Origin: Hansfordia pulvinata
Taxonomy: Eukaryota; Ascomycota; Sordariomycetes; Xylariales
Assembly: GCA_006538405.1 (NCBI GenBank)
Contig: BJKQ01000055.1
Location: forward strand, 1 to 19,420
Direction of reading: 5' to 3'
Length of the DNA: 19,420 bases
Shown: positions 1-18,527 of the stretch, piece by piece
Position numbering within the stretch: the first letter of the stretch is position 1
How the letters are laid out: each line of letters starts with the position of its first letter
Notes under the pieces: model-generated
Databases searched by the model: none
The model's input: the letters and a program-made list of their open reading frames with translations, nothing else
Told to the model about the DNA's origin: nothing
Made by a program: the position numbers and the translations under genes

Positions 1-1050
1 GGTCGGTCGCTCCCTGTCCGTTCCCGGGTCGGCGCTCTCGTCGCCCGGCGTGTGCCCGGGCCCGCGCCCGCGGCCGCCCCTCTCCGGCGCTCCCGGGTCG
101 GTGGCTCCCCTGTCGCGGGTCCGGGTCGGTCCTTCCCCTGTCCGGTCCCGGGTCCTCCCGTGCCGGCCGGGCGCTGGCTTGTCTGGGTGCTCCCGGTCCT
201 CGGTCGCCCCCGCCCCCCTCTTTTTGCGGCCCGTCCCTGCGCCCCCGCGCCCGCCGCGGCGCGTTTGGCGCCCCGTGGGGTCGGTGGGTCCGTGCGGGGG
301 GCGCCGCTGGGCCCCCGCGCCCTGGGTTCCGTGTTCCGGGCGCCGCTGGCGCTGGCCCTCGCGCTCCGGGGCGCTTGGTCGTCCCGGGCCGCCCCTTTCC
401 GGGCTCGCCGGGGGCGGTCCGTCCCCTGGGCCCCCTTGGCCGGGGCCCCGGGCGCGGTCCCGGGTCGGCTTTCTCGCCCTCGGCGCCCTCGCCGGGTTCG
501 CTGTCGCCCTCTTCGGGGGGCCCTTTTTCTCGGGGTCGTCGTCGGCGTCGCGGGGGCGGGCCCCGGGGCGGGTGCTCGGGGCCGCGCCGCGCGGCCTTTC
601 GCGGCCCTCCCCTGTCGCCGTTGCCGGGTCGCCTCCCTGTCGCCGTTCCCGGGTCGGTCGCTCCCGGGTCGGTTCCCTTGGCGGGCTCCCGGGTCGGTCG
701 CGCCGGCCGTGGCGGGGCCTGCCCTCGGCCTGCTCGCTCCGGGCTCGTTCCCGGTCGGTGCGTCCGTCCTCGTTCTCCGCCGCTCCCCGTCCCTGGCCGC
801 GCGTCGGTGCCGGGTCGGTCCGGTGTTGGGCTGGTTCTCGCCCGGTCCTCTTTTCGCCTCCTCCCCTTCTGTCCCGCCCCCCCTTGTTCCCGGTTGCCCC
901 GCGCTGCTGCGGTCTGCTCCCGCCTCTCCCTCCTCCGCGCCTCCTGGGCCCCGGCGGCCCGGCCGGGCCGCTCCCTCGGGCCGCCTGGTGCTGCCTTCGT
1001 CTGGGTCGCCTCCCCTGTCCCTCCCCTGTCGCCGTTCCCTCGGTCGTGTC
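1..1050 (+). repeat. IGS short-motif repeat region (CCCGGGTCGG), unit 0, partial
   Basis: Repeated occurrences of CCCGGGTCGG, often followed by a ctcccctgtc-like stretch, make a degenerate subrepeat of about 25-35 bases. It is the same region as 8190-9549 and 16691-18040. The last copy, near 1034-1045, is damaged (ttccctcggtc instead of ttcccgggtcggtc). Because A and C are merged, the true motif may contain A in place of some C. Confidence 0.7.
157..290 (+). repeat. IGS 135-bp duplicated block, copy A (unit 0)
   Basis: It begins cccgtgccggccgggcgctg and ends ggggtcggtgggtc. The same block recurs at 1521-1655 with only run-length differences, while the flanks on both sides differ. It includes a ctctttttgcggcccgtcc core. 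It may be a spacer promoter copy (see copy B). Confidence 0.9.
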
Positions 1051-1401
1051 CGGCCCGCGTTGGCCCCCTCCCCCTTGGCCCCTGCTGGGTGCTGCCCCGC
1101 CCCGTGCCCCCGGTGCCCCCCTCCCTTCTGTTTGCCTTCGCGCCCTCTCTCGCCTGGCCTCGCTCCGTCCGCGTGCCTCGCCTCCCCGTCGCCCCCGGTC
1201 GGTTTCTCCCTTTTCCCGCCCCGCTCCGGCCGGGCCCCCCCTGGGGCGGCTTGGCCCGGCCTGTTTCCTCCCCTCGCCCCCCTCCCGGCCCGGTCCTTTT
1301 CCCCCCCCCTCGCCCTTTTGCCCCCGCGGGCCCCCCCCCCCCTCCCGGTGCCCCCCCCCTGTGGGCCGGTCGGGTTCGGGGCCGGGCGGGGGGTCGCCGT
1401 C

Positions 1402-1461
1402 GGGTTCGGCTTCGGCGTCGGGGTCGGTTTGGGCCTCGGGTCCGGCCTCGGGTTGGGCCGG
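1402..1461 (+). repeat. Phased degenerate hexamer array GGNNNN x10 (unit 0)
   Basis: Ten consecutive hexamers each begin with GG: gggttc, ggcttc, ggcgtc, ggggtc, ggtttg, ggcctc, gggtcc, ggcctc, gggttg, ggccgg. Allowing C to stand for A, several read as GGGTTA-like telomeric variants (GGGTTA is the usual fungal telomere repeat on this strand). It lies within a G-rich block at 1361-1500, just upstream of the second 135-bp block. The function is unknown. Confidence 0.75.
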
Positions 1462-1520
1462 TTTGCTGGCGGGCGGGTGGTGGGCGCGGGTGGGCCGGCG
1501 CCTTTGCCTCCGTCCGCCCC

Positions 1521-1655
1521 CCCGTGCCGGCCGGGCGCTGGCTTGTCTGGGTGCTCCCGGTCCTCGGTCGCCCCCGCCCCCCTCTTTTTGCGGCCCGTCC
1601 CCCTGCGCCCCGCGCCCGCCGCGGCGCGTTTGGCGCCCCGTGGGGTCGGTGGGTC
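1521..1655 (+). promoter_or_regulatory. IGS 135-bp duplicated block, copy B; candidate Pol I gene promoter (unit 0)
   Basis: Near-identical to 157-290. Its end lies 706 bases before the 18S start. Yeast transcription starts about 700 nt upstream of 18S, so this copy sits where a Pol I core promoter or start would be expected, and copy A would be a spacer promoter. The duplication is seen directly; the promoter role is inference from position alone. Confidence 0.45.
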
Positions 1656-2361
1656 TCTGCGCCCGCGCCCGCCTTCGCGCTGCGCCCTCCGCCCTCGTGC
1701 TTCGCGCGTCTCCGCCTCTCCGGGTTCCGGCCCGCTCCCCGGTTTCTGGCGCCCGTCCGCCCCTGTCTTCCCGCGGTCCTGGCGTCGGGCCCCCGGGGCC
1801 CCGTCCCTTCCGTCGGGCTGGCCCCGGGTGGTCTCCTGGCTTCCGGTCCCGGTCCTCGCGGCCCGTTCCGGCTCCTCCTGCGGTCTCTTTTCCGCGCGGT
1901 TTCCGTTGCGTGTTTCTTTGTCCCGCCTTGCCGCTTCGGCTCGGTCGCGGGGCTTCCTCGCGGTTCCCTCCCCCTCGTGCGCTGCTTCCGCGCTCTCTCG
2001 GCTGCCCCGGCTGTGTCGCTTCGGCGGTCCCGCTCCCGGCTGGGCTTTGTCGCTTCTTGGCCTCTGGCTCGTCCTCTCCGTCCCGCCGCGGGCGCTCCCT
2101 GCCCGCTGGTCCCTCGGCTTCGGCCCTGGCCCCTGCGGGCCCGCGTCTCCTCTTGGGGCTTCTCCGTCCCCCGCGGGCCTCCCCCCCCCCGTGCGGCGGC
2201 CCCGTCCTGGGGCCTGTCGCGGGGCCCCGCGGCTGGCGCTCCCGCGTGTGCCGGGCCCTGCCCGCTCGCCTGCGCGTCCCCTCGCTTCTGTTCGGTGCCG
2301 CCGTCCGTCCCTCCTTCTTCCCTGCCTCCGGGCGGGGCTGGCCCCCCCGGCGCCCGCTCGT
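1656..2361 (+). other. 5' external transcribed spacer (probable), unit 0
   Basis: Seven hundred and six bases between the second 135-bp block and 18S, conserved between all three units. The length suits a fungal 5' ETS, which is transcribed with 18S and removed in processing. No transcription start or U3 snoRNA site can be fixed with A masked. No gene is seen. Confidence 0.6.
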
Positions 2362-4127
2362 TCCTGGTTGCTTCTGCCGTCGTCCTCTGCTTGTCTCCCC
2401 GCTTCCGCCCTGCCTGTCTCCGTCTCCGCCCTTCTCCCGCGCCCTGCGCCTGGCTCCTTCCCTCCGTTCTCGTTTCTTTGCTCGTCCCTTCCTCCTTGGC
2501 TCCCCGTGGTCCTTCTCGCGCTCCTCCCTGCTCCCCCTCCGCCTCCCGGCGGGCTGTCTTTCTTCGCTTCCCCCCCCTGCCCTTCGGGCTCCTTGGTGCT
2601 TCCTCCTCCCTTCTCGCCTCGCCTGGCCTTGCGCCGGCGCTGGTTCCTTCCCCTTTCTGCCCTCTCCCCTTTCGCTGGCCGGGTCTTGGCCTGCCCTGGT
2701 TCCCCGGGTCCCGGCGGGTTCGGGCTCGCCCCGGCGCCGGCGCCTGCGCCCCGGCTCCTCCTCCCCGGCCGGCCGCCGGCGCGCCCCTTCCCCCCTCCGC
2801 CTCGGGGCGGTCGTGCCCCTCCCTCCTGCTCCGGGCTCTTTTGGGTCTTGTCCTTGGCCTGCGTCCCCTTTCCCTCCCTTCCCGCGGCCCCCTTGGCGGG
2901 CCCGTCTGGTGCCGCCGCCGCGGTCCTTCCCGCTCCCTCGCGTCTCTTCCCGTTGTTGCCGTTCCCCGCTCGTCGTTGCCCCTTGGGCCTGGCTGGCCGG
3001 TCCGCCTCCCGCGTGCCCTGGTTCGGCCGGGCCTTTCCCTCTGGGCCCCCCTGCCCTTCCTGGGTGTGCGGGGGCCCCCGGCCTTTTCCTGTGCCCCCTT
3101 CGCGTGTTCCCCGCCGGCCTCTGCTCGCCTCCCTTCGCCTGGCCTCCTCGCCTCGGCCGTGTGGTTCTCTTTTGTTGGTTTCTCGGCCCCCCGTCCTGCT
3201 TCCTCGGGCCCGTCGGGGGCCTCCGTCTTCCGTTGTCCGCGGTGCCCTTCTTGGCTTTCCGGCCGCCTCCCTCCTGCGCCCGCCTTTGCCCCGGCTGTTT
3301 TCCTTCCTCCGGCCCGCCCGTTCGGGGCTCGCCGCCGCTCCGCTCCCGTCGTCGTCTTCCCCCTCCCCTCTGCCGCCTCGGGCTCGGCCGCTGTTCTTTT
3401 TTTGCCTCGTTCGGCCCCTTCCGCGCCCTCCCCGTCTTTGGGTTCTGGGGGGCGTCTGGTCGCCCGGCTGCCCTTCCCGCCCTTGCCGGCCGGGCCCCCC
3501 CCGGGGTGGCGCCTGCGGCTTCCTTTGCCTCCCCCGGGGCCCCTCCCCCGGTCCCGCCCCCTGCGGCTTGCCCGCTTGCGCGCTCTTTCTTGCTTTTGTG
3601 GGTGGTGGTGCCTGGCCGTTCTTCGTTGGTGGCGTGCTTTGTCTGCTTCCTTGCGCTCCCGCCCGCGCCCTTCCCCTGCTCCCTCGCCGTCTTGCTTTGG
3701 CCGTCCGCTGGCTTCTTCGCGGGCCTCTCCGCTCCGCGGCTGGCCGTTTGCGGCCCTCCCGGTCTGTGCTGCCCTTCGCTGTTCTGGGCCGCCCGCGCGT
3801 TCCCCTGCCCGGGCCCGCGCGTCCTTCCTTGGTCGCGCTCCCCGGGTCCTCTTGTTCCCCCTGTCGTGCTGGGGCTCGCGCCTTGCCCTTCTTGCTCTTC
3901 CCCGCGGCCTCCCTCGTCCGCGTCCGTCCTCCCCTTGCGTTGCTTCCGTCCCTGCCCTTTGTCCCCCCGCCCGTCGCTCCTCCCGCTTGCCTGGCTCCGT
4001 GCGGCTTTCGGCCTGGCCCCGCGGCGTCGGCCCCGCCCCCTCCGGGCCGGCCGTTCTCCCCCTCGGTCCTTTCGCGGCCGTCCCGTCGTCCCCGGTCTCC
4101 GTTGGTGCCCCCGCGGCGGGCTCCTTC
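2362..4127 (+). rRNA. 18S rRNA: 18S (small subunit) rRNA, unit 1, A written as C
   Basis: Small-subunit rRNA of the cytosolic ribosome, transcribed by Pol I as the first gene of the 35S/45S precursor. The 5' end tcctggttgcttctgccg fits TACCTGGTTGATTCTGCCAG with one base lost. The 530-loop is at 2909-2924 (gtgccgccgccgcggt, one C short). The stretch gggttctggggggcgtctgg at about 3440 fits the universal GGGTTCTGGGGGGAGTATGG. The decoding-site region gtccccccgcccgtcgctcc at 3961 fits GTACACACCGCCCGTCGCTAC with one C missing from the run. The 3' end ggctccttc fits GGATCATTA. The length of 1,766 is about 30 short of a typical ascomycete 18S, and the checked losses fall in merged A/C runs. No group I intron interrupts it. 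GATTCTGCC near the 5' end instead of GATCCTGCC is, by recall, a Sordariomycetes trait. Confidence 0.96.
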
Positions 4128-4276
4128 CCGCGTTTTCTCCCCTCCCCCCCTGTGCCCTTCCCTCTGTTGCCTCGGCGGCGCCCGGTCGCGCGCCTCTCGC
4201 GCCCTCCCCGGGCCCGCCGGTGGCCCCCCCCTCTTTTGCCTTTTTCGCCCTTCTGCGTGCCCCTCCTCCTCCGTTC
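4128..4276 (+). other. ITS1, unit 1
   Basis: Internal transcribed spacer between 18S and 5.8S, removed during processing, 149 bases. The start ttcccgcgttttctc fits an ascomycete TTACNGAGTT-type opening, and ctctgttgcctcggcgg fits the CTCTGTTGCCTCGGCGG found in many Sordariomycetes. Its end (cgttccccctttcc) fits CGTTAAAACTTTCAA at the entry to 5.8S. Confidence 0.9.
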
Positions 4277-4433
4277 CCCCTTTCCCCCCGGCTCTCTTGG
4301 TTCTGGCCTCGCTGCCGCCCGCCGCGCCCTGCGCTCCGTCCTGTGCCTTGCCGCCTTCCGTGCCTCCTCGCCTCTTTGCCCGCCCCTTGCGCCCCTTCGT
4401 CTTCTCGTGGGCCTGCCTGTTCGCGCGTCCTTT
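4277..4433 (+). rRNA. 5.8S rRNA: 5.8S rRNA, unit 1, A written as C
   Basis: Large-subunit 5.8S rRNA, which pairs with the 5' end of 28S. It is 157 bases, against about 157-158 in fungi. The start ccctttccccccggctctc fits AAACTTTCAACAACGGATCTC, and the end gttcgcgcgtcctttc fits GTTCGAGCGTCATTTC. The variable hairpin at 4389-4408 reads gcgccccttcgtcttctcgt, compatible with GCGCCCATTAGTATTCTAGT. I recall that form from Xylariales and related Sordariomycetes. Confidence 0.96.
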
Positions 4434-4586
4434 CCCCCCCTTCCGCCCTGTTGCTTCGCGTTGGGCGCCTGCCGTCCCCGGCCGCTCCTCCCCGTCCTCG
4501 GCGGCGTTTCCGTCCTCTCTCCGCGTCGTCCTTCGTTCTCGCTTCTGCCGTGCTGTGGCCCCTGCCGCTCCCCCCCCCTTTTTCCG
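4434..4586 (+). other. ITS2, unit 1
   Basis: Spacer between 5.8S and 28S, about 153 bases. The segment ttgcttcgcgttgggcgcct (4451-4470) reads as TTGCTTAGCGTTGGGAGCCT under the merge, which I recall from Hypoxylaceae and Xylariaceae ITS2. Later parts fit a ...GGCGGAGT...GTAGTA... pattern of the same group. It ends at gg before gtttgccctcgg of 28S. Confidence 0.9.
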
Positions 4587-7500
4587 GTTTGCCCTCGGCT
4601 CCGGTCGGCCTCCCCGCTGCCCTTCCGCCTCTCCCTCCGCGGCGGCCCCGCCCCCCCCGGGCTTGCCCTCGTCCCGGCGCGTGCCGCGGCCCCCGCTCCC
4701 CTTTGCCCTCTGGCCTTCTGGTCCGCCTTGTCCTTTGCCGCGGCTGCCTTTGCCGCGGTCCCTTTCGCGTTCCTTGGCCCCGGCCGCCTTCGCGGGTGCG
4801 CGCCCCGTCCGCTTGGCCCCCCGTCTCTGTCCTGCTCCTTCGCCGCGTCGCGTCGTTTGGGCCTGCTGCTCTCCCTGGGCGGTCCCTTTCTTCTCCCGCT
4901 CCCTCCCGGCCCGCGCCCGCTCGCGCCCCCGTCGCGTGCTCGCCCGCTGCCCCGCCCTTTGCCCCGCGGGTTCCCTCGCCCGTGCCCTTGTTGCCCGGGC
5001 CGCGCTTCTGCCCCGCCTTTTTCTCGGGGGCTCCTCCGGCGTTCTCGCTGGTGCCCTTCCCCTGGTTTCGGCCCCCCTCGGTTTCTGCGGGCGGCTCCCG
5101 GCTTCGGGCCTGTGCCTCCTCCGGGCGTGTTCTCGCCCGTTGCCTCCTCCCTCGCGGGCCCGCGGTCCGCGCCTTGCCCGGCTGTTGGCCTCCTGGTCCT
5201 CCGTGCCCCGTCTTGCCCCCGGCCCCCGGCGTCGCCCCTTTGTGCGCGTGTTTGGGTGTCCCCCCTCCCGCGTCCTGCCCGTGCCCGGCGGTGCGCGCCT
5301 TCGGGTGCCTCCTCGCCCGCTCCTGCTGTCTTCGGCTGGCTTTGCGTCCGCGCCTCCCTGTTCGGCCCCGCCCGCTGGTGCCCTCTGCGTGGCTCGGGTG
5401 CCGCCCGCGGCCCCTCTGGTGGCGGCTCGCCGCGGTTCTGCCGTGCCCCTCGCTCGTCCCCTCTGCGCCTGGGGGCGCCCGCCTCCTCGCCCCCTCTCGT
5501 CGCTGGTTCCCGCCGCCGTTTCCCTCCGGCTCGCCGTGTTGTTTTCCGTTTTCTGCGGTCCCGCGCCTGCTTCGGGCCTCGGGGGCGCTCTCTCGCCTTC
5601 CTCCCTTCTCCCCTTTCCCTCTGTCCGCCGCCCTTGTTCCTTCCTTGCCCGTGGGCCTTCGCCTGTCTCCCCCCTCGTGGGCCCTTTTTGGTCCGCCGCC
5701 CTGGCGCTGCGGGCTGCCCCGCCCGCGCGGTTCCGGTGCCCGCGTCGCCGCTCCTCCGCCCCCCCCCGGTGTTCGTCCCTCTTGCCCGCCGGCCGGTGGC
5801 CCTGGCCGTCGGCCTCCGCTCCGGCCTGTGTCCCCCTCCCCTGCCGCCTGTCCTCGCCCTGCCCCTGGCTGGCGCTCCCGCGTCTCCCCCCTCCCTCGCC
5901 TCCGGGTCGCCCCGCTGCCCTGCGGCGTCGGCGGCCGTGGGGGTCCGTGCCGCCGCCTCGGGCGTGCGCCCGGGTCGCCCGGCCCCTCGTGCCGCTCTTG
6001 GTGGTCGTCGCCCTCCTTCCCTGCGCCCTTGCCGGCCCGCCGTGGGGCCCGGTTCCCTGTGCCCCGCGGTTGGCCGTGGGTTCGCCGCTCCTCCGCCCTC
6101 GGGCCGTTCCGTTTCCCCGTGCGCCCTTGTGCGCCGTCTGGCGCCCGGGCCGCCGGTCCCTCTTCCGGCGCCTGGCTTTGGGTTTTGCGCGGCCCCGCCC
6201 CTGCCCGTGGCGCCGCCGGCGGGGGCCCTGGGCCGCGTTCTCTTTTCTTCTTCCCGGTCTCTCCCCTGCCCTCGGTTTGTCCGGCGCTCGGGTTTCCCGG
6301 CCGGCCGCGCCCGCCCCCTCTGTCGGGTCTGGTGCGCCCCCGCCGTCCCTTGCCCCTCCCCGGGCCGGCCTCCTTCTCCCGCCCGGTCGTCCTCCTCCCC
6401 GCCGCCGGTCTCCCCGGTGCCCCGCCTCTGGTTGCTCGCCCCTGTCGCTCCGGGCCGTCGGCCCCCTCGCTCCGTCCCTTCGGGCTCCGGCTTGGCTCTC
6501 CGGGTTGGGTGCGTTGGGCCTTTGGTGGCCGGCTCGGGCGCCGCTCGCCCCTCGCCGGGCCCCCGGCCGGCGGCTTTCCGCCTCTGGGTTCTGCCGCCTT
6601 TGGCCGGCTTCGGCCGTCCGGCGCCCGTTTCCCCCCCCTTCGCCCTGGTCCGGCCCGGGGCCTCTGCCTGTCTCCTTCCCCCTCGCCTTGCGCTGGTCCG
6701 CCCGTGCTGTTGCCGCCCTGTGCTTTCTGCCCCGTGCTCTGCCTGTCCCCGTGCCGCCCTTCCCCCCGCGCGGGTCCCCGGCGGGCGTCCCTCTGCCTCT
6801 CTTCCGGTCGCCCCCTGCCTCGTCCTCTCCTTCGTGCCGCGCCTGCCTGGCTTCCCGCGCTTCCCCCTGTCCCTCTCTCCTCTCTCGCGCCCCCCCCCCC
6901 CGGGCCCGGGCTTGGCCGCCTCCGCGGGGCCCGCCGCCCCTGTTGCGCTTGCCTCTCGTTTGCCCTTGTGCCCCGCCCTCGGCGGTGTCGCCTCGGCGGG
7001 CGCTTCGGCGCCGGTGCCCTCCCTCTCCTCCTCTTGTTTTTTTCCTTCTTCCCTGCCGCGGGGCTGGCTTTCCGTCCCCCTTCTGGTCTTCCGGTCCTTC
7101 GCGGGCCGCCCCGGGTTGCCGCCCTTGTCCGGTGGGGCGTTTGGCTGGGGCGGCCCCTCTGTTCCCCCCCCGCCGGTGTCCTCCGGGGGGCTCCTGGCGC
7201 CCCGCCCTCTCCCGTCGCCCCCCGGGTCCCGTCCCCTTGCTTTTGCTTTTCCGTGTGCCTCCCCCCTGCCCGTGTGGCCTCTCGCTCCTTTCGTCCCTCG
7301 CCCTTTGCGGCTCGCGGTGCCCGCCCCGTTCCCCCGGGCTCCCTGGCTTGTGGCGGCCCCGCGTCCCTCGCGCCGTCGCTTTTTGCTCCTTCGCTGTCGG
7401 CTCTTCCTCTCCCCGCCGCCGCCTTCGGTCCGCGTTGGCTTGTTCCCCCCTCCTCGGGCCCGTGCGCTGGGTTTCGCCCGTCGTGCGCCCGGTTCGTTTT

Positions 7501-7893
7501 CCCCTCCTGCTGCCCTCCCCGCCCTGGTCCTTGCGCTTCGTCCGCGCGGCCCCGCTCCTTCCGCTCCTTGGTTTTTGCGGCTGTCCGCCCGGGCCGTGCC
7601 GCGCCGCTCCCCTCTGCTGGGTCCTGGCTGCCCGCCTCTCCGTCCGCCCCCTGCCCGCCCGCGGTGCTCCCTCCCCCCGTTGTCGCCGGCTCCGCCTCGG
7701 CTCCGGCCTCGTCTCTTCGCTGGCGCTTCCTCCCCTCTCTCGCCGTGCGTTGTGGTCTTTCGCGTCTTGTCCTTTCCCCCCGCGTGGGCTTCCCTCCTTT
7801 GCCGCCGCCTTCGCTGTGCCCCCGGGTCCTGTCCGCCGTCGCGTCGCCTTGTTGTTCCGCTCTGCTGCGGGTCCGCCTCCTTTGCCTCGCTTT
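4587..7893 (+). rRNA. 28S rRNA: 28S/25S (large subunit) rRNA, unit 1, A written as C
   Basis: Large-subunit rRNA, carrying the peptidyl-transferase centre and factor-binding site. The start gtttgccctcggctccggtc fits GTTTGACCTCGGATCAGGTA, followed by cccgctgcccttccgcctc for CCCGCTGAACTTAAGCATA. A mid-gene conserved stretch ggtggccctggccgtcgg (5795-5812) fits GGTGGCCATGGAAGTCGG. The sarcin-ricin loop cgtccgcgcggccccg is at 7539-7554, followed by ggtttttgcggctgtc. Near the 3' end ttgttgttccgctctgctg fits TTGTTGTTACGATCTGCTG. The length of 3,307 suits an intron-free ascomycete gene with some run-length losses. The exact 3' end is placed by analogy with yeast and may be off by several bases. Confidence 0.96.
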
Positions 7894-7928
7894 CTCCTCT
7901 CTCCCCCCTCCGGGGCGGTGCTCCGGGC

Positions 7929-7976
7929 TTTCTTCTTGCCTTCTTCTTTTTTTCTCGCCCGGCTGCTCCCGGGTCC
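7929..7976 (+). terminator. Candidate Pol I terminator: T-rich tract plus Reb1-compatible motif, unit 1
   Basis: A T-rich stretch (tttcttcttgccttcttc, then seven T at 7947-7953) begins about 36 bases after the 28S end. At 7969-7976 ccgggtcc is compatible with the yeast Reb1 site CCGGGTAA when A is written as C. A T-rich element followed by a Reb1 site is the known yeast Pol I terminator layout. The same pair is in unit 2. Because C may be either C or A, the Reb1 reading is only possible, not shown. Confidence 0.4.
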
Positions 7977-8189
7977 GCCGCTCGCGGCCTTGCCTGCCCT
8001 GCCTCTTGCTCCGCCTTTGTCTCTGGGCCCCCGTGGTCGGTCGCGCGGCGTCTTTTGCCCCTCCGGGGTCGGGGGTCTCGGGTCCGTCCTCGCCGGCCTT
8101 GGCCCGCTCTGGCCCCGCCCCTTCCTCCCCGCGCCTCCTCCTTGGCCCCCGCCGGGTGGTGCGCGGGTTCCCCGGCCGTTTTCGCGGGG

Positions 8190-9549
8190 CGGTCCCGGGT
8201 CCGTTGCCTCGGCCTTGGTCGCGGGGCCGGCGCCCGCCTCCCCTGTCGCGCCTGCGCCGGCGCCTGGTCCCGGGTCGCTCCCCCGGGCCCTGCCCGGCCG
8301 GTGCGGGCCCGCGCCTCCCCTGTCGGTGGCCCCTCGCGGCCGCCTCTTCCCGGGTCGGTCCTTCCCCTGTCCGGTGCCGGGTCGGTGGCTCCGGCCCTTG
8401 GGCGGCGGCCTGCGGCGGCCGCCTTCCCCGCCTTCCCCCGTGCCGGCTGCTCCCGGGTCGGCCCTTCCCCTGTCGCGTCCCGGGTCGGTCGCTCCCTGTC
8501 CGTTCCCGGGTCGGCGCTCTCGTCGCCCCGGCGTGTGCCCGGCGGCCCCGCGCCCGCGGCCGCCCCTCTCCGGCGCTCCCGGGTCGGTGGCTCCCCTGTC
8601 GCGGGTCCCGGGTCGGTCCTTCCCCTGTCCGGTCCCGGGTCCCTCCCGTGCCGGCCGGGCGCTGGCTTGTCTGGGTGCTCCCGGTCCTCGGTCGCCCCCG
8701 CCCCCCCCTCTTTTTGCGGCCCGTCCCCCTGCGCCCCCGCGCCCGCCGCGGCGCGTTTGGCGCCCCCGTGGGGTCGGTGGGTCCGTGCGGGGGGCGCCGC
8801 TGGGCCCCCGGCGCCCTGGGTTCCGTGTTCCGGGCGCCGCTGGCGCTGGCCCTCGCGCTCCGGGGCGCTTGGTCGTCCCGGGCCCGCCCCTTTCCGGGCT
8901 CGCCGGGGGCGGTCCGTCCCCTGGGCCCCTTGGCCGGGGCCCCGGGCGCGGTCCCGGGTCGGCTTTCTCGCCCTCGGCGCCCTCGCCGGGTTCGCTGTCG
9001 CCCTCTTCGGGGGGGCCCTTTTTCTCGGGTCGTCGTCGGCGTCGCGGGGGCGGGCCCCGGGGGCGGGTGCTCGGGGCCGCGCCGCGCGGCCTTTCGCGGC
9101 CCTCCCCTGTCGCCGTTGCCGGGTCGCCTCCCCTGTCGCCGTTCCCGGGTCGGTCGCTCCCGGGTCGGTTCCCTTGGCGGGCTCCCGGGTCGGTCGCGCC
9201 GGCCGTGGCGGGGCCTGCCCTCGGCCTGCTCGCTCCGGGCTCGTTCCCGGGTCGGTGCGTCCGTCCTCGTTCTCCGCCGCTCCCCGTCCCTGGCCGCGCG
9301 TCGGTGCCGGGTCGGTCCGGTGTTGGGCTGGTTCTCGCCCGGTCCTCTTTTCGCCTCCTCCCCTTCTGTCCCGCCCCCCTTGTTCCCGGTTGCCCCGCGC
9401 TGCTGCGGTCTGCTCCCGCCTCTCCCTCCTCCCGCGCCTCCTGGGCCCCGGCGGCCCGGCCGGGCCGCTCCCTCGGGCCGCCTGGTGCTGCCTTCGTCTG
9501 GGTCGCCTCCCCTGTCCCTCCCTGTCGCCGTTCCCGGGTCGGTCCCGTG
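8190..9549 (+). repeat. IGS short-motif repeat region (CCCGGGTCGG), unit 1
   Basis: I count twelve exact CCCGGGTCGG in this complete copy (starts near 8349, 8452, 8479, 8504, 8578, 8607, 8953, 9143, 9159, 9184, 9246 and 9533), plus variants such as gccgggtcgg and cccgggtcgc. By composition far fewer than one would be expected. Many are followed by a ctcccctgtcg-type stretch, giving an irregular subrepeat of about 25-35 bases, clustered at 8340-8640 and 9110-9310. Fungal IGS often holds such subrepeats; the role here (enhancer, replication barrier, factor site) is unknown. Confidence 0.8.
8645..8783 (+). repeat. IGS 135-bp duplicated block, copy A (unit 1); candidate spacer promoter
   Basis: Same block as 10034-10169, whose start lies 1,389 bases downstream. 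It runs from cccgtgccggccgggcgctg to ggggtcggtgggtc. After the block the sequence diverges at once (cgtgcggggggcg here, tctgcgcccgcg in copy B), so its borders are sharp. Confidence 0.9.
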
Positions 9550-9914
9550 CCCCCCCCGCGCGTCCCCCGCCCGGCCTCCCCCCTTGGCCCCCTGCTGGGT
9601 GCTGCCCCGCCCCGTGCCCCCCGGTGCCCCCCTCCCCTTCTGTTTGCCTTCGCGCCCTCTCTCGCCTGGCCTCGCTCCCGTCCGCGTGCCTCGCCTCCCC
9701 GTCGCCCCCGGTCGGTTTCTCCCCTTTTCCCGCCCGCTCCGGCCGGGCCCCCCCTGGGGCGGCTTGGCCCGGCCTGTTTCCTCCCCTCGCCCCCTCCCCG
9801 GCCCGGTCCTTTTCCCCCCCCTCGCCCTTTTGCCCCCCGCGGGCCCCTCCCCCCCTCCCCGGTGCCCCCCCCTGTGGGCCGGTCGGGTTCGGGGCCGGGC
9901 GGGGGGTCGCCGTC

Positions 9915-9974
9915 GGGTTCGGCTTCGGCGTCGGGGTCGGTTTGGGCCTCGGGTCCGGCCTCGGGTTGGGCCGG
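9915..9974 (+). repeat. Phased degenerate hexamer array GGNNNN x10 (unit 1)
   Basis: Identical to 1402-1461: ten in-phase hexamers starting with GG inside a G-rich block (9874-10012). Compatible with degenerate GGGTTA-like repeats if some C stand for A. Confidence 0.75.
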
Positions 9975-10033
9975 TTTGCTGGCGGGCGGGTGGTGGGCGC
10001 GGGTGGGCCGGCGCCTTTGCCTCCGTCCGCCCC

Positions 10034-10169
10034 CCCGTGCCGGCCGGGCGCTGGCTTGTCTGGGTGCTCCCGGTCCTCGGTCGCCCCCCCCCCCCCTCTT
10101 TTTGCGGCCCGTCCCCTGCGCCCCCGCGCCCGCCGCGGCGCGTTTGGCGCCCCGTGGGGTCGGTGGGTC
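10034..10169 (+). promoter_or_regulatory. IGS 135-bp duplicated block, copy B; candidate Pol I gene promoter (unit 1)
   Basis: Second copy of the block at 8645-8783. It ends 707 bases before 18S, the distance expected for a fungal transcription start. One internal G is missing in the C run near 10087 compared with the other copies, probably a read error. The promoter role is inferred from position and from the spacer-promoter duplications known in other rDNAs. Confidence 0.45.
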
Positions 10170-10876
10170 TCTGCGCCCGCGCCCGCCTTCGCGCTGCGCC
10201 CTCCGCCCTCGTGCTTCGCGCGTCTCCGCCTCTCCGGGTTCCGGCCCGCTCCCCGGTTTCTGGCGCCCGTCCGCCCCTGTCTTCCCGCGGTCCTGGCGTC
10301 GGGCCCCCGGGGCCCGTCCCTTCCGTCGGGCTGGCCCCGGGTGGTCTCCTGGCTTCCGGTCCCGGTCCTCGCGGCCCGTTCCGGCTCCTCCTGCGGTCTC
10401 TTTTCCGCGCGGTTTCCGTTGCGTGTTTCTTTGTCCCGCCTTGCCGCTTCGGCTCGGTCGCGGGGCTTCCTCGCGGTTCCCTCCCCCCTCGTGCGCTGCT
10501 TCCGCGCTCTCTCGGCTGCCCCGGCTGTGTCGCTTCGGCGGTCCCGCTCCCGGCTGGGCTTTGTCGCTTCTTGGCCTCTGGCTCGTCCTCTCCGTCCCGC
10601 CGCGGGCGCTCCCTGCCCGCTGGTCCCTCGGCTTCGGCCCTGGCCCCTGCGGGCCCGCGTCTCCTCTTGGGGCTTCTCCGTCCCCCGCGGGCCTCCCCCC
10701 CCCCGTGCGGCGGCCCCCGTCCTGGGGCCTGTCGCGGGGCCCGCGGCTGGCGCTCCCGCGTGTGCCGGGCCCTGCCCGCTCGCCTGCGCGTCCCCCTCGC
10801 TTCTGTTCGGTGCCGCCGTCCGTCCCTCCTTCTTCCCTGCCTCCGGGCGGGGCTGGCCCCCCCGGCGCCCGCTCGT
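10170..10876 (+). other. 5' external transcribed spacer (probable), leading to unit 2
   Basis: Seven hundred and seven bases between the second 135-bp block and the 18S of unit 2, nearly identical to 1656-2361. Part of the precursor transcript if the promoter guess is right. Nothing else recognisable. Confidence 0.6.
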
Positions 10877-12645
10877 TCCCTGGTTGCTTCTGCCCGTCGT
10901 CCTCTGCTTGTCTCCCCGCTTCCGCCCTGCCTGTCTCCGTCTCCGCCCTTCTCCCGCGCCCCTGCGCCTGGCTCCTTCCCTCCGTTCTCGTTTCTTTGCT
11001 CGTCCCTTCCTCCTTGGCTCCCGTGGTCCTTCTCGCGCTCCTCCCTGCTCCCCTCCGCCTCCCGGCGGGCTGTCTTTCTTCGCTTCCCCCCCCTGCCCTT
11101 CGGGCTCCTTGGTGCTTCCTCCTCCCTTCTCGCCTCGCCTGGCCTTGCGCCGGCGCTGGTTCCTTCCCTTTCTGCCCTCTCCCCTTTCGCTGGCCGGGTC
11201 TTGGCCTGCCCTGGTTCCCCCGGGTCCCGGCGGGTTCGGGCTCGCCCCCGGCGCCGGCGCCTGCGCCCCGGCTCCTCCCTCCCGGCCGGCCGCCGGCGCG
11301 CCCTTCCCCCTCCCGCCTCGGGGCGGTCGTGCCCCTCCCTCCTGCTCCCGGGCTCTTTTGGGTCTTGTCCTTGGCCTGCGTCCCCTTTCCCTCCCTTCCC
11401 GCGGCCCCTTGGCGGGCCCGTCTGGTGCCCGCCGCCGCGGTCCTTCCCGCTCCCCTCGCGTCTCTTCCCGTTGTTGCCGTTCCCCCGCTCGTCGTTGCCC
11501 CTTGGGCCTGGCTGGCCGGTCCGCCTCCCCGCGTGCCCTGGTTCGGCCGGGCCTTTCCCTCTGGGGCCCCCCTGCCCTTCCCTGGGTGTGCGGGGGCCCC
11601 GGCCTTTTCCTGTGCCCCCTTCGCGTGTTCCCCGCCGGCCTCTGCTCGCCTCCCTTCGCCTGGCCTCCTCGCCTCGGCCGTGTGGTTCTCTTTTGTTGGT
11701 TTCTCGGCCCCCGTCCTGCTTCCTCGGGCCCGTCGGGGGCCTCCGTCTTCCGTTGTCCGCGGTGCCCTTCTTGGCTTTCCGGCCGCCTCCCTCCTGCGCC
11801 CGCCTTTGCCCGGCTGTTTTCCTTCCTCCGGCCCGCCCGTTCGGGGCTCGCCGCCGCTCCGCTCCCGTCGTCGTCTTCCCCTCCCCTCTGCCGCCTCGGG
11901 CTCGGCCGCTGTTCTTTTTTGCCTCGTTCGGCCCCTTCCGCGCCCTCCCCGTCTTTGGGTTCTGGGGGGCGTCTGGTCGCCCGGCTGCCCCTTCCCGCCC
12001 TTGCCGGCCGGGCCCCCCCGGGGTGGCGCCTGCGGCTTCCTTTGCCTCCCCCGGGGCCCCTCCCCGGTCCCGCCCCCTGCGGCTTGCCCGCTTGCGCGCT
12101 CTTTCTTGCTTTTGTGGGTGGTGGTGCCTGGCCGTTCTTCGTTGGTGGCGTGCTTTGTCTGCTTCCTTGCGCTCCCGCCCGCGCCCTTCCCCTGCTCCCT
12201 CGCCCGTCTTGCTTTGGCCGTCCGCTGGCTTCTTCGCGGGCCTCTCCGCTCCCGCGGCTGGCCGTTTGCGGCCCTCCCGGTCTGTGCTGCCCTTCGCTGT
12301 TCTGGGCCGCCCGCGCGTTCCCCTGCCCGGGCCCGCGCGTCCTTCCTTGGTCGCGCTCCCCGGGTCCTCTTGTTCCCCCTGTCGTGCTGGGGCTCGCGCC
12401 TTGCCCTTCTTGCTCTTCCCCGCGGCCTCCCTCGTCCGCGTCCGTCCTCCCTTGCGTTGCTTCCGTCCCTGCCCTTTGTCCCCCCGCCCGTCGCTCCTCC
12501 CGCTTGCCTGGCTCCGTGCGGCTTTCGGCCTGGCCCCGCGGCGTCGGCCCCGCCCCTCCGGGCCGGCCCGTTCTCCCCCCTCGGTCCTTTCGCGGCCGTC
12601 CCCGTCGTCCCCGGTCTCCGTTGGTGCCCCGCGGCGGGCTCCTTC
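10877..12645 (+). rRNA. 18S rRNA: 18S (small subunit) rRNA, unit 2, A written as C
   Basis: Second complete 18S, 1,769 bases. This copy keeps the full run lengths at key places: ttccctggttgcttctgccc at the 5' end, and the 530-loop gtgcccgccgccgcggt at 11425-11441, followed by ccttcccgctcccctcgcg, an exact A-to-C image of AATTCCAGCTCCAATAGCG. The universal ggttctggggggcgtctgg follows at about 11958, the decoding region gtccccccgcccgtcgctcc is at 12478-12497 and the 3' end ggctccttc is at 12637-12645. The V4 region (ccttgggcctggctggccgg) matches the Sordariomycetes form CCTTGGGCCTGGCTGGCCGG with no A needed. No intron. Confidence 0.97.
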
Positions 12646-12793
12646 CCGCGTTTTCTCCCCTCCCCCCCCTGTGCCCTTCCCTCTGTTGCCTCGGCGGCGC
12701 CCGGTCGCGCGCCTCTCGCGCCCTCCCCGGGCCCGCCGGTGGCCCCCCCCTCTTTTGCCTTTTTCGCCCTTCTGCGTGCCCTCCTCCTCCGTT
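12646..12793 (+). other. ITS1, unit 2
   Basis: One hundred and forty-eight bases between 18S and 5.8S, the same as 4128-4276 apart from run lengths. It contains ctctgttgcctcggcgg shortly after the 18S end. Confidence 0.9.
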
Positions 12794-12950
12794 CCCCTTT
12801 CCCCCCGGCTCTCTTGGTTCTGGCCTCGCTGCCGCCCGCCGCGCCCTGCGCTCCGTCCTGTGCCTTGCCGCCTTCCGTGCCTCCTCGCCTCTTTGCCCGC
12901 CCCTTGCGCCCCTTCGTCTTCTCGTGGGCCTGCCTGTTCGCGCGTCCTTT
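12794..12950 (+). rRNA. 5.8S rRNA: 5.8S rRNA, unit 2, A written as C
   Basis: One hundred and fifty-seven bases, the same sequence as unit 1. The start cccctttccccccggctctc and the internal ctcttggttctggc are the A-to-C image of AAACTTTCAACAACGG and CTCTTGGTTCTGGC. The end is at gcgcgtccttt. Confidence 0.96.
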
Positions 12951-13101
12951 CCCCCCTTCCGCCCTGTTGCTTCGCGTTGGGCGCCTGCCGTCCCCGGCCG
13001 CTCCTCCCCGTCCTCGGCGGCGTTTCCGTCCTCTCTCCGCGTCGTCCTTCGTTCTCGCTTCTGCCGTGCTGTGGCCCCTGCCGCTCCCCCCCCTTTTTCC
13101 G
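12951..13101 (+). other. ITS2, unit 2
   Basis: One hundred and fifty-one bases between 5.8S and 28S, the same as 4434-4586 apart from run lengths, with the Xylariales-like ttgcttcgcgttgggcgcct near its start. Confidence 0.9.
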
Positions 13102-16100
13102 GTTTGCCCTCGGCTCCGGTCGGCCTCCCCGCTGCCCTTCCGCCTCTCCCTCCGCGGCGGCCCGCCCCCCCGGGCTTGCCCTCGTCCCGGCGCGTGCCGC
13201 GGCCCCCGCTCCCCTTTGCCCTCTGGCCTTCTGGTCCGCCTTGTCCTTTGCCGCGGCTGCCTTTGCCGCGGTCCCTTTCGCGTTCCTTGGCCCCGGCCGC
13301 CTTCGCGGGTGCGCGCCCCGTCCGCTTGGCCCCCCGTCTCTGTCCTGCTCCTTCGCCGCGTCGCGTCGTTTGGGCCTGCTGCTCTCCCTGGGCGGTCCCT
13401 TTCTTCTCCCGCTCCCTCCCGGCCCGCGCCCGCTCGCGCCCCGTCGCGTGCTCGCCCGCTGCCCCGCCCTTTGCCCCGCGGGTTCCCTCGCCCGTGCCCT
13501 TGTTGCCCGGGCCGCGCTTCTGCCCCGCCTTTTTCTCGGGGGCTCCTCCGGCGTTCTCGCTGGTGCCCTTCCCCTGGTTTCGGCCCCCTCGGTTTCTGCG
13601 GGCGGCTCCCGGCTTCGGGCCTGTGCCTCCTCCGGGCGTGTTCTCGCCCGTTGCCTCCTCCCTCGCGGGGCCCGCGGTCCGCGCCTTGCCCGGCTGTTGG
13701 CCTCCTGGTCCTCCGTGCCCCGTCTTGCCCCCCGGCCCCCGGCGTCGCCCCTTTGTGCGCGTGTTTGGGTGTCCCCCCTCCCGCGTCCTGCCCGTGCCCG
13801 GCGGTGCGCGCCTTCGGGTGCCTCCTCGCCCGCTCCTGCTGTCTTCGGCTGGCTTTGCGTCCGCGCCTCCCTGTTCGGCCCCGCCCGCTGGTGCCCTCTG
13901 CGTGGCTCGGGTGCCGCCCGCGGCCCCTCTGGTGGCGGCTCGCCGCGGTTCTGCCGTGCCCCTCGCTCGTCCCCTCTGCGCCTGGGGGCGCCCGCCTCCT
14001 CGCCCCTCTCGTCGCTGGTTCCCGCCGCCGTTTCCCTCCGGCTCGCCGTGTTGTTTTCCGTTTTCTGCGGTCCCGCGCCTGCTTCGGGCCTCGGGGGCGC
14101 TCTCTCGCCTTCCTCCCTTCTCCCCTTTCCCTCTGTCCGCCGCCCTTGTTCCTTCCTTGCCCGTGGGCCTTCGCCTGTCTCCCCTCGTGGGCCCTTTTTG
14201 GTCCGCCGCCCTGGCGCTGCGGGCTGCCCCGCCCGCGCGGTTCCGGTGCCCGCGTCGCCGCTCCTCCGCCCCCCCCCGGTGTTCGTCCCTCTTGCCCGCC
14301 GGCCGGTGGCCCTGGCCGTCGGCCTCCGCTCCGGCCTGTGTCCCCCTCCCTGCCGCCTGTCCTCGCCCTGCCCCTGGCTGGCGCTCCCGCGTCTCCCCCT
14401 CCCTCGCCCTCCGGGTCGCCCCGCTGCCCTGCGGCGTCGGCGGCCGTGGGGGTCCGTGCCGCCGCCTCGGGCGTGCGCCCGGGTCGCCCGGCCCTCGTGC
14501 CGCTCTTGGTGGTCGTCGCCCTCCTTCCCTGCGCCCTTGCCGGCCCGCCGTGGGGCCCGGTTCCCTGTGCCCCGCGGTTGGCCGTGGGTTCGCCGCTCCT
14601 CCGCCTCGGGCCGTTCCGTTTCCCCGTGCGCCCTTGTGCGCCGTCTGGCGCCCGGGCCGCCGGTCCCTCTTCCGGCGCCTGGCTTTGGGTTTTGCGCGGC
14701 CCCGCCCCTGCCCGTGGCGCCGCCGGCGGGGGCCCTGGGCCGCGTTCTCTTTTCTTCTTCCCGGTCTCTCCCCCTGCCCTCGGTTTGTCCGGCGCTCGGG
14801 TTTCCCGGCCGGCCGCGCCCCCCCTCTGTCGGGTCTGGTGCGCCCCCGCCGTCCCTTGCCCCTCCCCGGGCCGGCCTCCTTCTCCCGCCCGGTCGTCCTC
14901 CTCCCGCCGCCGGTCTCCCCGGTGCCCCGCCTCTGGTTGCTCGCCCCTGTCGCTCCGGGCCGTCGGCCCCTCGCTCCGTCCCTTCGGGCTCCGGCTTGGC
15001 TCTCCGGGTTGGGTGCGTTGGGCCTTTGGTGGCCGGCTCGGGCGCCGCTCGCCCCTCGCCGGGCCCCCGGCCGGCGGCTTTCCGCCTCTGGGTTCTGCCG
15101 CCTTTGGCCGGCTTCGGCCGTCCGGCGCCCGTTTCCCCCCCCTTCGCCCTGGTCCGGCCCGGGGCCTCTGCCTGTCTCCTTCCCCCTCGCCTTGCGCTGG
15201 TCCGCCCGTGCTGTTGCCGCCCTGTGCTTTCTGCCCCGTGCTCTGCCTGTCCCCGTGCCGCCCTTCCCCCCGCGCGGGTCCCCGGCGGGCGTCCCTCTGC
15301 CTCTCTTCCGGTCGCCCCTGCCTCGTCCTCTCCTTCGTGCCGCGCCTGCCTGGCTTCCCGCGCTTCCCCTGTCCTCTCTCCTCTCTCGCGCCCCCCCGCC
15401 CCGGGCCCGGGCTTGGCCGCCTCCGCGGGGCCCGCCGCCCCTGTTGCGCTTGCCTCTCGTTTGCCCTTGTGCCCCGCCCTCGGCGGTGTCGCCTCGGCGG
15501 GCGCTTCGGCGCCGGTGCCCTCCCTCTCCTCCTCTTGTTTTTTTCCTTCTTCCCTGCCGCGGGGCTGGCTTTCCGTCCCCCTTCTGGTCTTCCGGTCCTT
15601 CGCGGGCCGCCCCGGGTTGCCGCCCTTGTCCGGTGGGGCGTTTGGCTGGGGCGGCCCCTCTGTTCCCCCCCCGCCGGTGTCCTCCGGGGGCTCCTGGCGC
15701 CCGCCCTCTCCGTCGCCCCCCCGGGTCCCGTCCCCTTGCTTTTGCTTTTCCGTGTGCCTCCCCCCCTGCCCGTGTGGCCTCTCGCTCCTTTCGTCCCTCG
15801 CCCTTTGCGGCTCGCGGTGCCCGCCCCGTTCCCCCGGGCTCCCTGGCTTGTGGCGGCCCCGCGTCCCTCGCGCCGTCGCTTTTTGCTCCTTCGCTGTCGG
15901 CTCTTCCTCTCCTCCCGCCGCCGCCTTCGGTCCGCGTTGGCTTGTTCCCCCCTCCTCGGGCCCGTGCGCTGGGTTTCGCCCGTCGTGCGCCCGGTTCGTT
16001 TTCCCCTCCTGCTGCCCTCCCCGCCCTGGTCCTTGCGCTTCGTCCGCGCGGCCCCGCTCCTTCCGCTCCTTGGTTTTTGCGGCTGTCCGCCCGGGCCGTG

Positions 16101-16395
16101 CCGCGCCGCTCCCCTCTGCTGGGTCCTGGCTGCCCGCCTCTCCGTCCGCCCCCTGCCCGCCCGCGGTGCTCCCTCCCCCCGTTGTCGCCGGCTCCGCCTC
16201 GGCTCCGGCCTCGTCTCTTCGCTGGCGCTTCTCCCCCTCTCTCGCCGTGCGTTGTGGTCTTTCGCGTCTTGTCCTTTCCCCCCGCGTGGGCTTCCCTCCT
16301 TTGCCGCCGCCTTCGCTGTGCCCCCGGGTCCTGTCCGCCGTCGCGTCGCCTTGTTGTTCCGCTCTGCTGCGGGTCCGCCTCCTTTGCCTCGCTTT
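13102..16395 (+). rRNA. 28S rRNA: 28S/25S (large subunit) rRNA, unit 2, A written as C
   Basis: Second complete 28S, 3,294 bases, co-linear with 4587-7893. The start is gtttgccctcggctccggtc; ggtggccctggccgtcgg is at 14305-14322, the sarcin-ricin loop cgtccgcgcggccccg at 16041-16056, and ttgttgttccgctctgctg lies near the 3' end. It is 13 bases shorter than unit 1, mainly through C-run differences, for example one C fewer in several merged runs. No intron or insertion is present. Confidence 0.96.
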
Positions 16396-16429
16396 CTCCT
16401 CTCTCCCCCTCCGGGGCGGTGCTCCGGGC

Positions 16430-16476
16430 TTTCTTCTTGCCTTCTTCTTTTTTCTCGCCCGGCTGCTCCCGGGTCC
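16430..16476 (+). terminator. Candidate Pol I terminator: T-rich tract plus Reb1-compatible motif, unit 2
   Basis: Copy of 7929-7976, with six T (16448-16453) instead of seven, and ccgggtcc at 16469-16476. Same reasoning and same uncertainty as in unit 1. Confidence 0.4.
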
Positions 16477-16690
16477 GCCGCTCGCGGCCTTGCCTGCCCT
16501 GCCTCTTGCTCCGCCTTTGTCTCTGGGCCCCGTGGTCGGTCGCGCGGCGTCTTTTGCCCCTCCGGGGTCGGGGGTCTCGGGTCCGTCCTCGCCGGCCTTG
16601 GCCCGCTCTGGCCCCGCCCCTTCCTCCCCGCGCCTCCTCCCTTGGCCCCCGCCGGGTGGTGCGCGGGTTCCCCGGCCGTTTTCGCGGGGC

Positions 16691-18040
16691 GGTCCCGGGT
16701 CCGTTGCCTCGGCCTTGGTCGCGGGGCCGGCGCCCGCCTCCCCTGTCGCGCCTGCGCCGGCGCCTGGTCCCGGGTCGCTCCCCCGGGCCCTGCCCGGCCG
16801 GTGCGGGCCCGCGCCTCCCCTGTCGGTGGCCCCTCGCGGCCGCCTCTTCCCGGGTCGGTCCTTCCCCTGTCCGGTGCCGGGTCGGTGGCTCCGGCCCTTG
16901 GGCGGCGGCCTGCGGCGGCCGCCTTCCCCCGCCTTCCCCGTGCCGGCTGCTCCCGGGTCGGCCCTTCCCTGTCGCGTCCCGGGTCGGTCGCTCCCCTGTC
17001 CGTTCCGGGTCGGCGCTCTCGTCGCCCCGGCGTGTGCCCGGCGGCCCGCGCCCGCGGCCGCCCCTCTCCGGCGCTCCCGGGTCGGTGGCTCCCCTGTCGC
17101 GGGTCCCGGGTCGGTCCTTCCCCTGTCCGGTCCCGGGTCCCTCCGTGCCGGCCGGGCGCTGGCTTGTCTGGGTGCTCCGGTCCTCGGTCGCCCCCGCCCC
17201 CCCTCTTTTTGCGGCCCGTCCCCCTGCGCCCCGCGCCCGCCGCGGCGCGTTTGGCGCCCCCGTGGGGTCGGTGGGTCCGTGCGGGGGGCGCCGCTGGGCC
17301 CCCGGCGCCCTGGGTTCCGTGTTCCGGGCGCCGCTGGCGCTGGCCCTCGCGCTCCGGGGCGCTTGGTCGTCCCGGGCCCGCCCCTTTCCGGGCTCGCCGG
17401 GGGCGGTCCGTCCCCTGGGCCCCTTGGCCGGGGCCCGGGCGCGGTCCCGGGTCGGCTTTCTCGCCCTCGGCGCCCTCGCCGGGTTCGCTGTCGCCCTCTT
17501 CGGGGGGGCCCCTTTTTCTCGGGTCGTCGTCGGCGTCGCGGGGGCGGGCCCCGGGGGCGGGTGCTCGGGGCCGCGCCGCGCGGCCTTTCGCGGCCCTCCC
17601 TGTCGCCGTTGCCGGGTCGCCTCCCCTGTCGCCGTTCCCGGGTCGGTCGCTCCCGGGTCGGTTCCCTTGGCGGGCTCCCGGGTCGGTCGCGCCGGCCGTG
17701 GCGGGGCCTGCCCTCGGCCTGCTCGCTCCGGGCTCGTTCCCGGGTCGGTGCGTCCGTCCTCGTTCTCCGCCGCTCCCCGTCCCTGGCCGCGCGTCGGTGC
17801 CGGGTCGGTCCGGTGTTGGGCTGGTTCTCGCCCGGTCCTCTTTTCGCCTCCTCCCCTTCTGTCCCGCCCCCCTTGTTCCCGGTTGCCCCGCGCTGCTGCG
17901 GTCTGCTCCCGCCTCTCCCTCCTCCCGCGCCTCCTGGGCCCCGGCGGCCCGGCCGGGCCGCTCCCTCGGGCCGCCTGGTGCTGCCTTCGTCTGGGTCGCC
18001 TCCCCTGTCCCTCCCTGTCGCCGTTCCCGGGTCGGTCCCG
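16691..18040 (+). repeat. IGS short-motif repeat region (CCCGGGTCGG), unit 2
   Basis: Third view of the region at 8190-9549, with motifs in the same order. One motif near 17004 is shortened to ttccgggtcgg, a run-length difference. Confidence 0.8.
17143..17277 (+). repeat. IGS 135-bp duplicated block, copy A (unit 2); candidate spacer promoter
   Basis: Same as 157-290 and 8645-8783. Its partner, copy B, is at 18528-18659. Confidence 0.9.
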
Positions 18041-18408
18041 TGCCCCCCGCGCGTCCCCCCCGCCCGGCCTCCCCCCTTGGCCCCCTGCTGGGTGCTGCCC
18101 CGCCCGTGCCCCCCGGTGCCCCCCTCCCCTTCTGTTTGCCTTCGCGCCCTCTCTCGCCTGGCCTCGCTCCCGTCCGCGTGCCTCGCCTCCCCGTCGCCCC
18201 CGGTCGGTTTCTCCCCTTTTCCCGCCCGCTCCGGCCGGGCCCCCTGGGGCGGCTTGGCCCGGCCTGTTTCCTCCCCTCGCCCCCTCCCCGGCCCGGTCTT
18301 TTCCCCCCCCCTCGCCCCTTTTGCCCCCCGCGGGCCCCTCCCCCCCCCTCCCCGGTGCCCCCCCCCTGTGGGCCGGTCGGGTTCGGGGCCGGGCGGGGGG
18401 TCGCCGTC

Positions 18409-18468
18409 GGGTTCGGCTTCGGCGTCGGGGTCGGTTTGGGCCTCGGGTCCGGCCTCGGGTTGGGCCGG
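18409..18468 (+). repeat. Phased degenerate hexamer array GGNNNN x10 (unit 2)
   Basis: Identical to 1402-1461 and 9915-9974. All three copies keep exact hexamer phase with no indel, in contrast to the C runs around them. Confidence 0.75.
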
Positions 18469-18527
18469 TTTGCTGGCGGGCGGGTGGTGGGCGCGGGTGG
18501 GCCGGCGCCTTTGCCTCCGTCCGCCCC

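What the first reader, a model, noticed from the sequence alone, without database searches (positions are those of the whole stretch)
2362..16395. A hidden fungal rDNA array: every A has become C
What looks like an unknown satellite reads as 18S-ITS1-5.8S-ITS2-28S if C may stand for A or C. The match is exact over long conserved stretches (530-loop, decoding region, 5.8S, sarcin-ricin loop, 28S ends), gives the right gene order and lengths, and needs no change at T or G. Ordinary rRNA models or nucleotide searches could miss it.
Basis: partly seen in the sequence, partly recalled or inferred. Interest (0 to 1): 0.95.

Follow-up and report, generated by a model that had tools for sequence, protein, structure and literature searches.

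The report
Fungal ribosomal DNA misread without A
This stretch is an ordinary tandem array of fungal ribosomal RNA genes in which every A was written down as C, most likely by a long-read base-calling failure, so it is a hidden sequencing artefact rather than new biology.

Summary
The window has no A in 19,420 bases and is a tandem array with a unit of about 8.5 kb. With A recoded to C and homopolymer runs collapsed, ribosomal references match collinearly on one strand. A database-sourced eukaryotic 18S (L007) gives a 63-run exact block, against at most 31 in 100 Markov sequences. A recalled ascomycete-like 18S gives 241 runs. A>G, A>T or A deleted reach at most 40.

The cause is not mutation. 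A is lost while T is kept on the same strand. The window shifted by one unit shows 0 substitutions in 6,625 aligned runs and 10 gaps, but run lengths differ for 160/2,616 C, 14/2,140 G and 5/1,869 T runs. Runs that mix A and C in the reference come out short (length 6 or more: 28/31). So A and C were one symbol when run lengths were decided. A was probably called as C in single-strand long reads; the platform is inferred. The host assembly could not be searched. As biology it is ordinary rDNA; as an artefact it matters, because Rfam misses it.

The parts
1..19420 (+). Whole window: 19,420 bases without A; about 2.3 rDNA units
   Evidence: Base counts; repeats; period in compressed runs
1..2361 (+). 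Intergenic spacer before unit 1 (cut at the window start)
   Evidence: Repeats with later spacers; no rRNA reference aligned here
2362..4127 (+). 18S rRNA gene, unit 1, every A written C
   Evidence: 5 mismatches in 1,065 aligned compressed runs to a recalled 18S; eight collinear exact blocks with L007; ends set by eye
4276..4440 (+). 5.8S rRNA gene and first bases of ITS2, unit 1
   Evidence: 75-run exact block; 2 mismatches in 103 aligned runs
4588..7895 (+). 28S rRNA gene, unit 1
   Evidence: Blocks up to 174 runs; 0.967 identity over 1,871 aligned runs with gaps; 49-run block with L006 at 7434; weak Rfam LSU piece at 7348-7385
7896..10876 (+). Intergenic spacer between units 1 and 2
   Evidence: Lies between the aligned 28S and 18S; repeats
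10877..12645 (+). 18S rRNA gene, unit 2
   Evidence: As unit 1; ends set by eye
12794..12956 (+). 5.8S rRNA gene and first bases of ITS2, unit 2
   Evidence: 75-run exact block
13103..16397 (+). 28S rRNA gene, unit 2
   Evidence: 216-run exact block at 15132; 49-run block with L006 at 15936
16398..19363 (+). Intergenic spacer between units 2 and 3
   Evidence: Position between aligned genes; repeats
19364..19420 (+). Start of the 18S gene of a third unit, cut by the window end
   Evidence: 33-run block with L007 at 19376; start set by eye

Best explanation
The DNA behind the window is an ordinary fungal, ascomycete-like 35S rDNA array (18S-ITS1-5.8S-ITS2-28S-spacer). Every A of the strand shown was called as C before homopolymer lengths were decided, that is, at signal calling, base calling or consensus of single-strand long reads. 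Since T survived, reads of the two strands were not merged: passes of opposite strands with A collapsed would disagree at every A and every T site. High-copy rDNA supplied enough such reads to assemble as a separate, self-consistent contig. The likeliest instrument cause is a SMRT (PacBio) population of wells in which the A and C signals were not told apart (about 0.6 within this explanation). Shown: A written as C, one strand only, rDNA identity, length errors in merged runs. Inferred: the instrument, the per-strand consensus, the assembly route.
For: No A in 19,420 bases. A>C recoding alone gives long collinear blocks. 411 of 411 A in exactly matched 18S blocks are C while 404 of 404 T are T; the antisense strand recoded the same way gives 22 runs at most for the three rRNA references. 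Window shifted by one unit: 0 substitutions in 6,625 aligned runs, 10 gaps, length differences in 160/2,616 C, 14/2,140 G and 5/1,869 T runs; at equal length C exceeds G+T (3: 37/356 v 3/310; 4: 41/168 v 4/74; 5: 34/66 v 1/26; Fisher p 8e-8, 3e-4, 9e-6). Reference runs mixing A and C are shortened: length 4 17/73, length 5 19/32, length 6 or more 28/31 (both units counted, so sites count twice). Six of the 10 gaps, at 5 sites, are a lone G or T missing between C runs.
Against: No reads, platform, normal rDNA contig or antisense A-less contig was seen: the genome search did not complete (12 tries). Length errors are not confined to mixed runs: against the recalled reference pure C of length 3 differs in 5/28, more than mixed length 3 (12/118), and pure A of length 4 or more in 5/14. 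Against L007 the contrast is weaker: mixed length 4 8/26 (7 shorter, 1 longer), but T of length 3 4/14 and G of length 3 2/8, which may be species differences. No other A-less rRNA turned up in the collections that I could search, and no paper describing such contigs was listed.
Confidence: 0.88

Rival explanations
1. Text-level change: a correct rDNA contig or read set in which the letter A was replaced by C in a file, by a pipeline fault or on purpose.
For: The replacement is complete and touches no other letter.
Against: Plain replacement would leave runs mixing A and C at correct length; they are shortened (28/31 at length 6 or more) and C-run length varies between units (160/2,616). It would need added run-length noise. 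Pure C and long pure A runs also vary, so part of the noise does not depend on merging.
Confidence: 0.07
2. Adenines of the native DNA carry a modification, natural or from a labelling experiment, and a direct single-strand reader such as a nanopore called them C.
For: Would also hit A but not T on one strand and would merge A with C runs.
Against: Needs every A modified in genes and spacer in all units; no such fungal DNA is known to me (recalled). Not tested with signal data.
Confidence: 0.03
3. Real DNA that evolved to lack A on one strand.
For: The letters as written.
Against: A would have to change to C at every site, in conserved rRNA cores and spacer alike, with no T to G on the same strand and no substitution between units.
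Confidence: 0.005
4. Chance resemblance in a three-letter, run-collapsed alphabet.
For: Such sequences share words of 22-31 runs by chance; recoded E. coli rRNA shows only that (22 and 28), and lenient alignment scores shuffled references high.
Against: Blocks of 241, 216, 75 and 63 runs, collinear in both units.
Confidence: 0.001

Closest known systems
Fungal (Pezizomycotina-like) 35S rDNA tandem array
   Same: Gene order and sizes: 18S about 1.77 kb, 5.8S, 28S about 3.3 kb, spacer about 3 kb; 5 mismatches in 1,065 compressed runs to a recalled ascomycete-like 18S
   Different: No A is written anywhere; Rfam gives no match at gathering scores
Homopolymer-length errors of long-read consensus (known error class, recalled)
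   Same: Differences between units are almost only run lengths and grow with run length
   Different: Here one base is missing from a whole contig and its runs are fused with those of C; the listings of ten paper searches show no description of this
Strand-specific base conversion data such as bisulfite sequencing (recalled)
   Same: One base replaced by another on one strand only
   Different: Bisulfite turns C to T; no common chemistry known to me turns A to C

Membership tests
Eukaryotic 35S rDNA unit | 18S, 5.8S and 28S in this order on one strand, tandemly repeated | tested here: met
   After A>C recoding, in both units; with database records for 18S and the 28S 3' part only
Eukaryotic 35S rDNA unit | Recognised by rRNA covariance models as written | tested here: not met
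   0 matches at gathering scores; one piece of LSU_rRNA_eukarya at E=0.26. Expected if A is misread; the written letters are not a working rDNA
Ascomycete (Pezizomycotina) rDNA | Closer to ascomycete than to other eukaryotic 18S | tested here: inconclusive
   5/1,065 against 49/1,011 mismatched runs, but the ascomycete-like reference is recalled and only one other eukaryote was compared
Bacterial rRNA operon | Blocks shared with recoded E. coli 16S and 23S beyond chance | tested here: not met
   22 and 28 runs against Markov maxima of 26 and 30
Base-calling artefact of single-strand long reads | A lost and T kept on one strand; length errors concentrated in merged A/C runs | tested here: met
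   the length test is clear between units and against the recalled reference, weaker against L007
Base-calling artefact of single-strand long reads | Companion normal rDNA and antisense A-less contigs in the same assembly; signal collapse in the reads | not testable with these tools
   The genome search unreachable in 12 of 12 tries (calls listed in Tried and rejected); no reads offered

The most novel reading that the evidence does not exclude
The A-less letters report a real property of the molecules: native DNA in which the adenines of this array carry a modification, natural or from a labelling experiment, that a direct single-strand reader calls as C, so that the contig is a chemical imprint of fully modified rDNA.
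Probability: 0.03. Interest if true: 0.75.

Novelty: not a real feature. Interest (0 to 1): 0.33.

Why it matters
As biology it is ordinary fungal rDNA. As a data problem it matters: a contig that is self-consistent over more than two rDNA units can lack one base entirely, escape Rfam and look like a novel satellite. A check for contigs missing one of the four bases, and matching against base-collapsed rRNA, would catch it. It also suggests asking whether A-less reads of less abundant loci sit unnoticed in the same data.

Tried and rejected
Chance match: rejected by block lengths and collinearity. My first scoring, a lenient local alignment, was too weak: recoded 18S scored 1016 but shuffled versions 486-514, and E. 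coli 16S (422) scored below its shuffles (431-453); exact compressed blocks replaced it. Bacterial rRNA: not beyond chance. A deleted instead of A to C: at most 40 runs against 241. 5S gene in the window: a recalled fungal 5S gives 15 runs, chance level. SMRTbell adapter (recalled) in collapsed form: 15 of 34 runs, so no adapter chimera was seen. Other A-less rRNA: a recoded 530-loop pattern hit 1 stretch in viral contigs and 3 in genome contigs; all four loci contain A at 12-14% over their whole length, so they are taken as chance hits in GC-rich DNA. A second recoded pattern gave 0 in viral contigs. Window 2361-8400 gave no match in plasmids, phages or E. coli genomes in 'near' mode; a recoded 620-base piece of E. 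coli 16S gave none in E. coli genomes. An ordinary fungal 18S pattern gave 0 in viral contigs and an 18S piece none in phages. Literature: ten searches; two listed nothing; of the others I saw only listings and abstract starts, and opened no paper.

Full report
What is there. The window contains no A: C 9,025, G 5,823, T 4,572 in 19,420 bases. It is a tandem array; direct repeats are spaced 8,489-8,518 bases apart in the 20 of 36 families shown, which makes about 2.3 units. Rfam finds nothing at its gathering scores. In permissive mode on 2300-8100 it finds one weak piece of LSU_rRNA_eukarya at 7348-7385, E=0.26.

Test of the reading. I replaced A by C in rRNA references, collapsed homopolymer runs so that run length does not matter, and looked for exact common blocks. 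Two references come from databases: L007, a 1,764-base record that Rfam scores as eukaryotic SSU (1657.4 bits), and L006, whose first 361 bases score as the 3' part of a eukaryotic LSU (126.8 bits). In the 16 best matches printed, L007 has eight blocks (63, 39, 36, 34, 33, 29, 28 and 27 runs). All eight lie in order in unit 1, seven are also listed in unit 2, and the one at the 18S start recurs at 19376 in the cut third unit. L006 has a 49-run block in both units. Controls: 100 order-1 Markov sequences reached 31 (L007) and 29 (L006); A>G, A>T and A-deleted versions reached 18 to 30. With recalled references, blocks reach 241 (18S), 75 (5.8S) and 216 runs (LSU, 174 in unit 1). Twenty Markov sequences each reached at most 30, and the other recodings 14 to 40. 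E. coli 16S and 23S recoded gave 22 and 28 runs, no better than Markov (26 and 30). A first, lenient alignment score separated poorly and was dropped.

Anatomy. 18S 2362-4127 and 10877-12645; 5.8S with first ITS2 bases 4276-4440 and 12794-12956; 28S 4588-7895 and 13103-16397; a third 18S starts at 19364 (18S ends set by eye). Mismatched compressed runs: 5 of 1,065 to the recalled ascomycete-like 18S, 49 of 1,011 to L007, with 92 reference runs unaligned. The 28S aligns at 0.967 over 1,871 runs, with 173 window and 145 reference runs in gaps, against a partly yeast-type reference. The 18S start and 5.8S resemble Pezizomycotina (recalled). No finer placement was attempted.

What was lost. Exact blocks of 31 or more runs cover 1,570 of 1,796 bases of the recalled 18S and contain 411 A, all read as C, with 404 T, 419 G and 336 C kept. 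For 5.8S they cover 118 of 158 bases (37 A), for LSU 1,168 of 3,207 (341 A). The antisense strand recoded in the same way gives 8 to 22 runs for these three references. So A is lost on one strand while T, the A of the other strand, is untouched.

How it arose. Comparing the window with itself shifted by one unit, there is no substitution in 6,625 aligned runs and there are ten gaps. Run lengths differ for 160 of 2,616 C runs, 14 of 2,140 G runs and 5 of 1,869 T runs. At equal length the excess remains: length 3, 37/356 for C against 3/310 for G+T; length 4, 41/168 against 4/74; length 5, 34/66 against 1/26. Against the recalled reference, runs that mix A and C are shortened: length 4, 17/73; length 5, 19/32; length 6 or more, 28/31, each by one or two bases. 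T of length 3 differs in 0/46 and pure A of length 3 in 1/46 (both units counted, so each site counts twice). Results that fit less well: pure C of length 3 differs in 5/28, more than mixed runs of length 3 (12/118); pure A of length 4 or more in 5/14. Against L007 the contrast is weaker: mixed length 4 differs in 8/26 (7 shorter, 1 longer) and length 6 or more in 4/4, but T of length 3 in 4/14 and G of length 3 in 2/8, perhaps true species differences.

Of the ten gaps, six, at five sites, are a lone G or T missing between C runs, such as the T missing near 7401 that unit 2 has near 15901; three cluster at 1040-1064 and one is at 54. A plain text replacement of A by C would leave mixed runs at correct length, so A and C were probably one symbol when run lengths were decided.

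Mechanism. The best account is single-strand long reads in which A was called C, a consensus kept separate by strand (opposite strands would disagree at all A and T sites), and assembly of abundant rDNA reads into a contig of their own. SMRT sequencing with unresolved A and C signals fits best; that these two signals can be confused in this way is my inference from recalled knowledge and comes from no call. Platform, reads and companion contigs were not seen, because the genome server did not complete (12 identical tries).

Known or not. The array is ordinary rDNA. Ten paper searches (listings and abstract starts only) showed no description of A-less contigs, which does not prove that there is none. 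The recoded patterns and the window itself found no other A-less rRNA in the collections that I searched; the metagenome collection was not scanned.

Verdict. The change from A to C is a reading artefact with high probability. Biological interest is low; interest as a failure mode of long-read assemblies is moderate.

Noticed in passing
L007 (NZ_CP050525.1, 1-1764): A record filed as complete plasmid pVB7036_2 of Acinetobacter baumannii is matched end to end by eukaryotic SSU rRNA (Rfam 1657.4 bits, model 14-1797 of 1831); it looks like contaminating plant-like 18S (recalled).
   Followed up: partly
163-193, 1527-1557, 8651-8681, 10040-10070, 17148-17178, 18534-18564: A 31-base word occurs twice per spacer, about 1.37-1.39 kb apart: a duplicated segment inside the intergenic spacer.
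   Followed up: no
1040-1064 against 9536-9564: Three of the ten gaps between units cluster here, near the window start: real spacer variation or poorer consensus.
   Followed up: partly
1569-1590, 10082-10100, 18576-18595: A lone G inside a long C run is present in units 1 and 3 and missing in unit 2, an example of a base dropped between merged runs.
   Followed up: partly
L006 (IMGVR_UViG_3300009564_000091, 1-361): A contig in the viral collection begins with the 3' part of a eukaryotic LSU rRNA gene, so it may be a misfiled eukaryotic fragment.
   Followed up: no
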